In this document: positions 11 to 60,247 of the stretch, in pieces
Layout of the letters: the number at the start of each line of letters is the position of its first letter
How positions within the stretch are numbered: position 1 is the stretch's first letter
NCBI GenBank assembly: GCA_016946835.1
Contig: JACVTC010000018.1
Span: 396,501-460,500, forward strand
Reading direction: 5' to 3'
DNA length: 64,000 bases
Origin: Neocallimastix lanati (nom. inval.)
Taxonomy: Eukaryota > Neocallimastigomycota > Neocallimastigomycetes > Neocallimastigales > Neocallimastigaceae
Made by a program: the position numbers and the translations under genes
Notes under the pieces: model-generated
What the model was told of the DNA's origin: nothing
Database searches by the model: none
Seen by the model: the letters and a program-made list of their open reading frames with translations, nothing else

Positions 11-170
11 ATGGTTAATTTTAAATATTTAAGGTAAACTACTGTTATATTTAAAAAATTCATCAGTAATATTAGTTAATCTTTATTATTAATTTTTTCT
101 ATTACTTTATTTAATTATAATATCAGTCTACCGTTATTGGTGGGCTTACTATATGGAGGAACTGCTTTAG
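11..170 (+). other. G1 signal peptide, split over two micro-exons
   Basis: The ATG at 11 opens a 23-nt exon ending at a GTAAAC donor. The next exon (127-170) follows an ATCAG acceptor. The junction is phase 2 and gives a basic start (K at residue 5) followed by a hydrophobic core rich in Leu and Val, then G-G-T-A-L-G-A-G-T-C. This fits a Sec signal peptide cleaved near residue 22-24. Only 10 nt of upstream sequence are in the window, so no promoter can be described. Confidence 0.75.
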
Positions 171-3100
171 GTATTTTATATGTGAATTAAGAAAATATTT
201 TTTTTCAGATAGTATTAAATATTTTACATATTATTAATTAATATAGGTGCAGGTACATGTGAATTTGTGGATGATAATGGTACTCCAAAAGCGGATCCAA
301 CTTGTTAGTATTTTATAATATAATTTAAATCTAAAATTACTAGTAATTAATGATTAATTTTATTTTTTAATATAGGTACAGCAACTAATGACGGCTATCA
401 TTATGTAGAAACAGACGCAACTAACCATGAAGGCTATATCGCAGAATATAAATATGATAATAATCATGATAATGGAATTGCAAAAACGGATACAGGTTTT
501 TATAAATTAAAATCAGGAAAATATGCTTCATGTGCAAAAAATATATGTAAAGTACTAGAAACACCCACAGTATCATGTACAAAGGAAAACATTGGTAAAC
601 TTGTGAACGATAGCACTAATGGTATTTCCCTTTGTCTTGCTGAATATGAAGTCAGTGGTGGAACTAAAAAATATCCAACATTGAAGTTTGCTGATAATAC
701 TACACCTCCTGCTTATTTCTTAGTACAACACAAGAGTAATACGATCTTTAATTTGGATGTATCCAAAAATTATTATGTAGTAGAACCGACAAAGGAAACA
801 ATTCTTTTGAATACTGTTTATGGTTCCACTGGTAAAAATAAAATTATTCTGAACTTAATTAAGTAATTAAATAATATTTTAGAATTGGTTAATAATATTA
901 TTATAAATTTATAGGTTATGACTGTGCGAAGGCTAGTACTAGTAAAATCGTTGGTAGAATAGAAGATCTCTGTAGCGCAGACGACAGTACAGGAAAATAT
1001 TTTGAATGTGTAAATGGTGAATGTTTATCCTATAAACAGGATAAACCAGATGTACAAGAGTCTAATGGCGAAATTTGTAAATATAATAGTTCAAGCGATA
1101 AATACGAAGGAAATTGTAGTACAAGTAACTACTACGTAATTGATAATAACAAAAATATTGTAATAACTACTCAAAGTGGTACAATAATTAAATTAACTGG
1201 AAGTAATGGAGTATATGCTAAAGATACAGCTTCAATAACCCCTGTTAGATATAATCTTAATGCTGATGTGTCTACCAAAGAAACGTATCCATTAATTGAT
1301 TGTGGCAGTACCCCTTCTGCAACATGTAAATTAATGGCTGTAGATGCACCAGGTTATTATTTGAATTCATCTGAATCCCAAACAGGTATAGAGTGTACAT
1401 CAAAGACAACTTGTAGTACCTATAGTACTGCAAGTTGTACCAGTATTGGTAAATTTTCATTATCAGAAAATAAATTCTGTGAAAGTGCTACTGGAGTATT
1501 ATTTAATGTAGATAAAGAATTCTTAATTACAGTTGAAAGTGGAAATTTCCCAGGGGTTACCACTAAGAGTAATATAGCGGTTAAATTAGATAAGACCAAT
1601 AGAACAATAAAATTGGTTGAAAAGAGTTCGACATGTATTAGTGATAATGATATAGTAAAGAAGGAGAATGGTAAATTCTACTACTGTACAAACAATGTTG
1701 AAATTGAAATGAAAGATAACGGTGCCGTATTTGTAAATAAAAATTCATCAAATAAATATCAATTGGTTAAAATTAAAGCTATTGGTATTGAAGTTTTAAC
1801 TGAAGAAAATTTATACGAAGCAAATAAAAATAGTAAGTGTTATTTTCCATAGAAAGAATTAAAATTTTTAGAAATTTTAATAATTTATTTATTTGAATTT
1901 TTATTTATTACTAATATTTAATTTAATCCCATTTTAAATATTAGATGAGGGATACTATGTTGACAGAAGTACTGGAGCAAATGGTATTGTTTATTGTACA
2001 AAAAAACAAGTAGCTGATGGTCAAGCTGATCCAGATCAATTTGAATGTACCACAAAATCTTTTGTTGAAAATGATGTATTTGTGAATAAGGAAGTAAAAT
2101 TCCCCATTAATAAAATTGAACATAACGCAAAGCTTATTCACTGCACAGGTGGTAAATGTGAGGTGAAGGAAGATAAATTTGGTAAAGGATTATTCTTTAC
2201 TAATTCATTAAAAGGTTTAATAGAGTGTTCTGAAAGTTTGGATTGTGAAGCAAAAGATCCAAAGGAAGAAAATAATAAACCTACAGTTGGTAATTATATA
2301 AATGGAATTAAAAATCGTTCTTTAATTGTATGTAAAAGTGAAAAGTATACCGAAGAAGGTACTGAAAAAGAAGCAGTTTACTGTGAAACTAAACAAGCTG
2401 AAAAAAGTGGCTATTATCTTGAATTTAACAAAAACCTTATAATTTGTGGGGAGGATAAATGTGTATCCAAAGCTCCTGCTGATATTTTCGAAGATGAAGA
2501 CGAGATAAAGATAAATACATACTTGAACAGCGAAGATTCCGATGATAAAATTATTGAATGTACAGAACAAGAATGTAACAAAATTGAAAAACCAAATAAC
2601 TACTTTGTAGATGATAGTCAAAAAGCTTTGGTGTTAATCAAATGTGATTCTACAGCTAAAACTTGTAAGAAAGTTTCTCTTGAAAGTTCTGGAAATATCT
2701 ATCGTGGTGTTTTCATTTCTAATAACGGAAAGAGATTGATTAAGTGTGAACAAACTTCATGTAAAATTATTAAGGATAGTGATGTAGACGATAATAAAAA
2801 AGAAAACAAATATTATTTGAACGGTGAAACAGGAACTAATGTTAAACCTTTAATTCATGGAAATCAACCAGAAACCCCCGCATCAAGAAAAAGAGAAGCT
2901 GAAGCAGCTAAATGGGAATTGAAAGAAGCTGATGTAAATGGAATATACATAAATGAAAATAAAGAAGGCATTGCACTTCTGAAATATCCTGTAATATACT
3001 GTACAGGAAAGTATGCATGTAATGAAATTGAAGATGACGATGAAAACGCGAAATTTATGGTTCTTAAAGATAATCAAAAAAGTCAATATATATCAGTGAA

Positions 3101-59600: not shown

Positions 59601-60247
59601 CAAATTCGTACCATCATGAACGATTAAAGATAGGGTACTTGGATCACTGGCATCAATATAGGCAGAATTATAACCAGAAATGCCGGTTCGAACGGAATAG
59701 TATTTCGATTTGACACAAGTGATGACATTCGCCGAAGTGGTTACGGAGGCGTCAATAAAGTGACCTTCCGGTATGGATTCCACTTCCTTACAATTATCAA
59801 TATTATTGCCCGAGCATTTCAACAGTTTCTTGTAGGTATGGAAAGGAGCCGTTTGAGAAATTGTGGGAAGTCCCAGAAGGTAGTATCCTAAGGAGATACT
59901 TGCTTTTTTACATGCACCATCCTTGTCACAGACGTATAAGGTATCATCATCAACATAATTAGATTGAATGATCTGAGAGCATTTTCCACTTTCACAAATA
60001 TAAATTAATCCATTTCCAGTATCTATATCTTCTAAAGTATATGTAATTGGAGTTCCAGAGTTTTCTTTTAAAATATACGTGCCATCGCTTTTAACATCAC
60101 ATGATCCTTCACCATCTTTAGATTGGTATATTTTTCCATCTGAATATATACAATATTTATCATTACCAAGTGCAGTTTTACTGCTTTCATTTATATATTC
60201 TGTATAGCACTTGTTGCCACCAATAACTTTTGCACATTGAGTTAATG
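56618..60247 (-). pseudogene. G4: 5'-truncated scaffoldin-like paralogue with two in-frame stops
   Basis: Exons: 60247-58163 and 57210-56618, joined at the same phase-1 split Cys codon as in G2 and G3. The first exon begins at a TATAG acceptor at the place matching the start of G2/G3 exon 4. No signal-peptide exon or exon-3 equivalent is found up to 64000. The frame is open over about 2.1 kb except for TAA at 59162-59160 and TGA at 58973-58971, 189 nt apart. The TGA stands where the repeat pattern expects Cys (Y-Q-stop-D-G-N-G-Q-C). The content is G-Y-Y/Cys units, an FPG-like unit, the acidic linker and the intact C-terminal domain ending L-D-C-V-N-S-R-C-K-T-L-S. A decayed gene is most likely. 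Assembly error or recoding at the stops is less likely. Confidence 0.75.

What the first reader, a model, noticed from the sequence alone, without database searches (positions are those of the whole stretch)
11..60247. Cluster of giant scaffoldin-like genes: one anchored, three unanchored
Four large Cys/GYY repeat genes occupy one locus. G1 (+, about 6,205 residues) has a signal peptide, Thr stalk and GPI-type tail. G2, G3 and G4 form a head-to-tail minus-strand tandem without an anchor. The sequence shows the repeats and ends directly. Scaffoldins of this size and style are established for Neocallimastigomycota. The inference is a two-tier system of a surface-held giant plus secreted soluble partners, comparable in logic to bacterial anchoring and primary scaffoldins.
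Basis: partly seen in the sequence, partly recalled or inferred. Interest (0 to 1): 0.85.

Follow-up and report, generated by a model that had tools for sequence, protein, structure and literature searches.

The report
Gut-fungus scaffoldin gene cluster, mostly confirmed
A gut fungus carries, side by side, one giant protein apparently tethered to the cell surface and a row of related secreted proteins that probably hold plant-digesting enzymes; the family is known, but the row shares a conserved tail piece whose job is unknown and easy to test.

Summary
The window lies in a 199-Mb, dockerin-rich genome of an anaerobic gut fungus. G1 (+, about 6,204 residues, five GT-AG introns, signal peptide, Ser/Thr stalk, GPI-type tail) is a scaffoldin: 34% identical to an NCBI-named Neocallimastix scaffoldin with the same tail. 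As assembled it carries seven single-base insertions, very probably consensus errors: two near-identical copies are open there. G2 and G3 (-, about 2,200 residues, shared introns) are open, secreted-looking and unanchored. G4 is not a giant: it has two premature stops and lacks 5' exons that its counterpart locus has.

The two-tier reading is only partly supported: unanchored scaffoldins were already in print, no dockerin was found on G2-G4, and binding could not be tested. New to me: the unanchored genes end in a shared ~200-residue cap; 46 of 59 cap matches lie within 100 kb of a G1-type giant (2.3% under uniform placement); caps are strongly constrained (dN/dS 0.07-0.21) while N-terminal repeat exons are nearly free (0.62-0.92).

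The parts
11..19068 (+). G1, anchored giant scaffoldin (exons 11-33, 127-170, 247-303, 376-831, 915-1832, 1945-19068; the last is broken in the window by seven single-base insertions)
   Evidence: GT-AG introns and open frame to 7588; homologues; open copies elsewhere in the genome
11..170 (+). Signal peptide of G1, MVNFKYLSLPLLVGLLYGGTALG, over two exons
   Evidence: Spliced translation; cleavage inferred by eye
18600..19068 (+). Ser/Thr stalk and GPI-type hydrophobic tail of G1 (start approximate)
   Evidence: Composition and hydropathy
26862..37504 (-). G2, unanchored scaffoldin-type protein (exons 37504-37431, 37302-35860, 34820-32958, 31016-28401, 27788-27336, 27043-26862; first ATG exon not found)
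   Evidence: 2,209-residue open spliced frame; P0013 and P0014
42259..52449 (-). G3, unanchored scaffoldin-type protein (exons 52449-52395, 52274-50811, 49752-47938, 46247-45024, 44604-43297, 42869-42259; first ATG exon not found)
   Evidence: 2,158-residue open spliced frame
56618..60247 (-). G4, short broken copy: two in-frame stops, upstream exons missing
   Evidence: Comparison with the C379 counterpart
42259..42869 (-). C-terminal cap of G3 (about 200 residues)
   Evidence: 66 matches in the genome; constraint 0.14
56618..57220 (-). C-terminal cap of G4
26862..27788 (-). C-terminal cap of G2, split by an intron
29776..31008 (-). Module of G2 that was modelled (Cys/GYY units plus following beta domains)
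   Evidence: AlphaFold2 pLDDT 82.9, pTM 0.79

Best explanation
This is a scaffoldin island of an anaerobic gut fungus. G1 is a secreted giant of the ScaA-like scaffoldin family with a GPI-type anchor; G2 and G3 are soluble secreted members of the same repeat family; G4 is a decayed one. Most likely the beta-structured Cys/GYY repeat arrays offer binding sites to the dockerin-bearing enzymes of this fungus, G1 holding its load at the cell surface and G2/G3 acting as released scaffolds, each ending in a conserved cap. Shown: genes, introns, repeats, tails, cap, linkage, selection gradient. Inferred: signal peptides of G2/G3, GPI attachment, dockerin binding, cell-bound versus free.
For: Dockerin family PF02013: 150 scored matches of 1,440 candidates here, 0 of 14 control genomes. 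G1 homologues over 50-100% of the query, one named scaffoldin by NCBI, 5 of 12 with the same Ser/Thr stalk and hydrophobic end. An HMM built from units of G2-G4 alone finds 22 units in that named scaffoldin, 0 in its reverse and 0 in 20 shuffles. 13 of 13 complete cap tails (window 3, C379 3, C41 7) stop within 10 residues of the cap without a hydrophobic tail. Published: scaffoldin fragments bind dockerin with a KD of 994 nM (PMC8262932, passages).
Against: No dockerin binding was or could be tested for these proteins; the repeat is unlike any solved structure found. In print, an anti-ScaA antibody did not label cellulosome proteins or cells (PMC8262932, passages). G2/G3 reach less than half the >500 kDa given there for the founding group. 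Fast change of the N-terminal exons sits oddly with binding a conserved dockerin. The HMM of the second (FPG) module from G2-G4 does not find G1 or the named scaffoldin beyond shuffles.
Confidence: 0.55

Rival explanations
1. Two-tier assembly: soluble G2/G3 load enzymes and then attach to surface-held G1. The conserved cap, not a dockerin, would be the attachment device.
For: Cap shared and strongly constrained; 46 of 59 cap matches within 100 kb of a giant.
Against: No dockerin, cohesin or CBM found; linkage may come from tandem duplication alone; no interaction data. A cap may only end the fold.
Confidence: 0.15
2. Adhesins or wall-facing glycoproteins: the family holds the fungus to plant fibre, host or microbes rather than enzymes to a scaffold.
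For: Signal peptide, stalk, GPI-type tail, Cys-rich repeats; fast N-terminal exons; in print the anti-ScaA signal did not match dockerin or GH48 and much of it lay on cellulose, judged nonspecific by the authors (PMC8262932, passages).
Against: Dockerin binding and presence of ScaA in cellulosome preparations by mass spectrometry are reported (PMC8262932, passages).
Confidence: 0.2
3. Relaxed selection: G2-G4 are redundant tandem copies on the way to loss, without a role of their own.
For: G4 broken; near-neutral ratios in N-terminal exons; many tandem copies.
Against: G2 and G3 stay open over about 2,200 residues and their caps are constrained (0.14-0.21).
Confidence: 0.1

Closest known systems
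ScaA-type fungal scaffoldins of Neocallimastigomycota (Haitjema et al. 2017, text not held; P0005 of Neocallimastix sp. 'constans')
   Same: G1: size, Cys/GYY repeat unit, signal peptide, Ser/Thr stalk, hydrophobic tail, 34% identity. G2-G4: the repeat unit.
   Different: G2-G4 lack stalk and anchor, are about 2,200 residues or shorter, and end in a cap that is not seen in the 12 G1 homologues: the tail part scores as noise, and the full cap HMM touches one of them only weakly (P0012, 19 bits).
Unanchored fungal scaffoldins, mentioned in print without detail (PMC8262932, passages)
   Same: Scaffoldin family without a membrane anchor; G2/G3 may simply be these
   Different: No description of a cap, tandem arrays or linkage to giants in the passages I saw
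Bacterial anchoring and primary scaffoldins
   Same: One surface-held and several soluble repeat proteins in one locus
   Different: No cohesin, dockerin or CBM domain detected; fungal scaffoldins are reported to have no sequence homology to bacterial parts (PMC8262932, passages)

Membership tests
Fungal (ScaA-type) scaffoldin | Encoded in a genome rich in fungal dockerins (CBM_10) | tested here: met
   150 scored matches of 1,440 candidates, 0 of 14 controls
Fungal (ScaA-type) scaffoldin | Sequence homology to a named scaffoldin | tested here: met
   G1: 34% over 91% of the query piece. G2-G4: through the repeat unit, 22 against 0 in controls
Fungal (ScaA-type) scaffoldin | Very large (>500 kDa), repeat-rich | tested here: inconclusive
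   Met by G1 (6,204 residues); G2/G3 repeat-rich but about 2,200 residues; print allows a wide size range
Fungal (ScaA-type) scaffoldin | Surface anchor (not required of all members) | tested here: inconclusive
   G1 has a GPI-type tail by composition; G2-G4 have none; print allows both
Fungal (ScaA-type) scaffoldin | Binds fungal dockerins | not testable with these tools
   Needs binding assays
Fungal (ScaA-type) scaffoldin | Present in the cellulosome fraction | not testable with these tools
   Needs proteomics
Bacterial-style anchoring/primary scaffoldin pair | Dockerin on the soluble scaffoldin | tested here: not met
   No dockerin family in the Pfam scans of all main G2-G4 exon pieces (the filters drop weak matches)
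Bacterial-style anchoring/primary scaffoldin pair | Cohesin domains by sequence | tested here: not met
   No cohesin family in the Pfam scans of 18 pieces
Bacterial-style anchoring/primary scaffoldin pair | Cohesin (jelly-roll) fold of the repeats | tested here: inconclusive
   No significant PDB fold match for two models; absence proves nothing

The most novel reading that the evidence does not exclude
Gut fungi carry paired scaffoldin islands: anchored giants lie beside arrays of secreted scaffolds that end in a dedicated ~200-residue cap. The cap is a constant attachment module (to the giant, the wall or another partner), while the repeat arrays in front of it diversify quickly and so tune which enzymes or substrates are held. 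This would be a fungal two-tier cellulosome built without a dockerin on the second tier.
Probability: 0.18. Interest if true: 0.75.

Novelty: new member of a known kind. Interest (0 to 1): 0.45.

Why it matters
How fungal cellulosomes attach to cells, and which part of a fungal scaffoldin is the cohesin, were called unresolved in print (PMC8262932, passages). A shared, strongly conserved cap on unanchored scaffoldins that sit near anchored giants gives a small, expressible domain to test for the attachment role. The locus also shows that scaffoldin counts per genome can mix two classes and broken copies.

Full report
Source. The window lies on a 1.77-Mb contig (C90:396501-460500) of an unnamed 199-Mb genome in 762 contigs. 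The fungal dockerin family PF02013 gives 150 scored matches (of 1,440 first-look candidates) and rings in 0 of 14 control genomes. Size and dockerin load fit Neocallimastix (187-201 Mb, 439-632 dockerin proteins, 60-98 scaffoldins in three genomes of PMC12341934, Table 1, passage). The genus is inference.

G1. The N-terminus reads as a signal peptide. The C-terminus is a Ser/Thr stalk and a hydrophobic end, shared with 5 of 12 homologues (P0001, P0002, P0004, P0005, P0007); two others (P0008, P0010) end in a membrane helix with a charged tail, and five end otherwise, some being fragments. Of the 12 homologues at E <= 1e-5 (30-50% identity), P0005 is named scaffoldin by NCBI. The frame breaks between 7,589 and 9,083 are single-base insertions relative to two copies in the same genome. 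In 4 kb, 85 sites vary among the three copies and none is unique to the window, and both other copies are open. The C379 copy has a 5,692-residue open frame. I take the breaks as consensus errors.

G2 and G3. Open over 2,209 and 2,158 residues when spliced, with the same intron positions and phases, except one intron in G3 that G2 lacks; in G3 the cap is one exon where G2 has two. Both have a hydrophobic, signal-like second exon; the ATG exon was not found. Both stop after a conserved motif without stalk or membrane segment. P0013 (99% identity, 60% of the query) and P0014 (72%, 86%), from JGI data, end at the same place; that search scored only the 7,991 candidates sharing most words.

G4. 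The window copy has two in-frame stops at sites where the C379 counterpart (89% DNA identity) is open. The two exons upstream of the counterpart have no full-length DNA match in the window; the best is 182 bases inside G3. A genome-wide search for them did not complete. Synteny with C379 ends at 61193, and a retroelement-like frame follows. G4 is best read as a broken copy; an assembly error is not excluded.

Repeat and fold. Unit of about 34 residues (consensus CEDVTSIKDGYYLNSSKNTNKLIKCTSGKCSKID): over 5 bits, 24 in G2, 24 in G3, 42 in the G1 pieces, 10 in the G4 pieces, and 10-46 in each of 14 homologues. That HMM was iterated on the window itself. The independent test is: an HMM from G2-G4 alone finds 22 units in P0005 (reverse 0, shuffle maximum 0), 29 in P0012 (0, 0), 19 in the 1,884-residue G1 piece (2, 1) and 6 in the last G1 exon (1, 0). 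The model of one module is all beta but for short helices (pLDDT 82.9, pTM 0.79, 18 sequences); the unit array alone gives pLDDT 87.0, pTM 0.82 (21 sequences). Neither has a significant match in the PDB.

Islands. C379 holds an inverted counterpart of the cluster: 95.7% DNA identity over window 470-21299 and 72-86% in the main syntenic blocks of the rest. C41 holds seven cap-ending genes in tandem facing a 6,029-residue G1-like frame with a Thr-rich tail. The G3 cap has 66 matches in the genome. In the three regions that I could read, 13 of 13 complete cap tails stop within 10 residues, none with a hydrophobic tail; the other matches were not checked for this. After collapsing neighbours and dropping one inside a giant there are 59 cap matches in 25 clusters. 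46 of 59, and by the same table 18 of 25 clusters, lie within 100 kb of one of 22 G1-type places (two of these are short pieces); 2.3% would be expected under uniform placement. Seven matches lie on contigs without a giant, and three on C710 lie over 800 kb from one. By my reading of the table, six of those 18 clusters face their giant tail to tail, two of the six being this locus and its counterpart; the rest are tandem, divergent or mixed. Uniform placement is a weak null, because tandem duplication alone makes families cluster.

Selection. Window against C379, codons in well-aligned stretches, NG86 with bootstrap. G2 exons A, B, C: 0.92, 0.69, 0.44; cap 0.15 and 0.21. G3: 0.62, 0.80, 0.53, 0.30; cap 0.14. 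G4: 0.38; cap 0.07. G1 after the breaks: 0.14. Repeats are hard to align, so the high values may be inflated: 277 of 477 codons of G3 exon A and 466 of 584 of G2 exon B were kept. The second cap exon of G2 has a wide interval (0.03-0.82). This is one pair of loci in one genome.

Mechanism. Best reading: enzyme scaffolds, one tethered and two free. Dockerin binding is inferred from the family. The bacterial analogy holds for layout, not for parts: no dockerin, cohesin or CBM was found. The cap is the best candidate for whatever fixes the soluble proteins in place, but it could be a mere end of the fold.

Novelty. Anchored and unanchored fungal scaffoldins, their number and their size, and free fungal cellulosomes are in print (passages). 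The cap, its linkage to giants and the selection gradient I did not meet in the listings named under Tried and rejected; the founding paper was not readable here.

Noticed in passing
window 62944-63915 (-): A 324-residue frame with a motif that looks, from memory, like a retroelement aspartic protease; it follows the point where synteny with C379 ends (61193). Beyond the window the contig holds a run of N and a chromodomain-like piece, also recalled.
   Followed up: no
window 1938-7586 against C379: 1,883 codons of G1 are identical between the two loci, while the rest of G1 differs by 2-3% in protein and the neighbouring genes by far more: a sign of recent exchange between the loci or of assembly mixing.
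   Followed up: partly
G000 C212, C511, C102, C75, C320, C415: Many further open frames of about 3,250 residues with 34-37% identity to the G2 exon: probably another large scaffoldin-like group.
   Followed up: no
window 45023-44605: G3 has an intron that G2 lacks at the same place in an otherwise shared gene structure.
   Followed up: partly
window 42262-42945 and 56621-57277: The caps of G3 and G4 are 71% identical, while other exons of the family are about 30-40%.
   Followed up: partly
P0008, P0010 (homologues of G1): They end in a membrane helix with a charged tail instead of a GPI-type tail, so anchored scaffoldins seem to come with two kinds of anchor.
   Followed up: no
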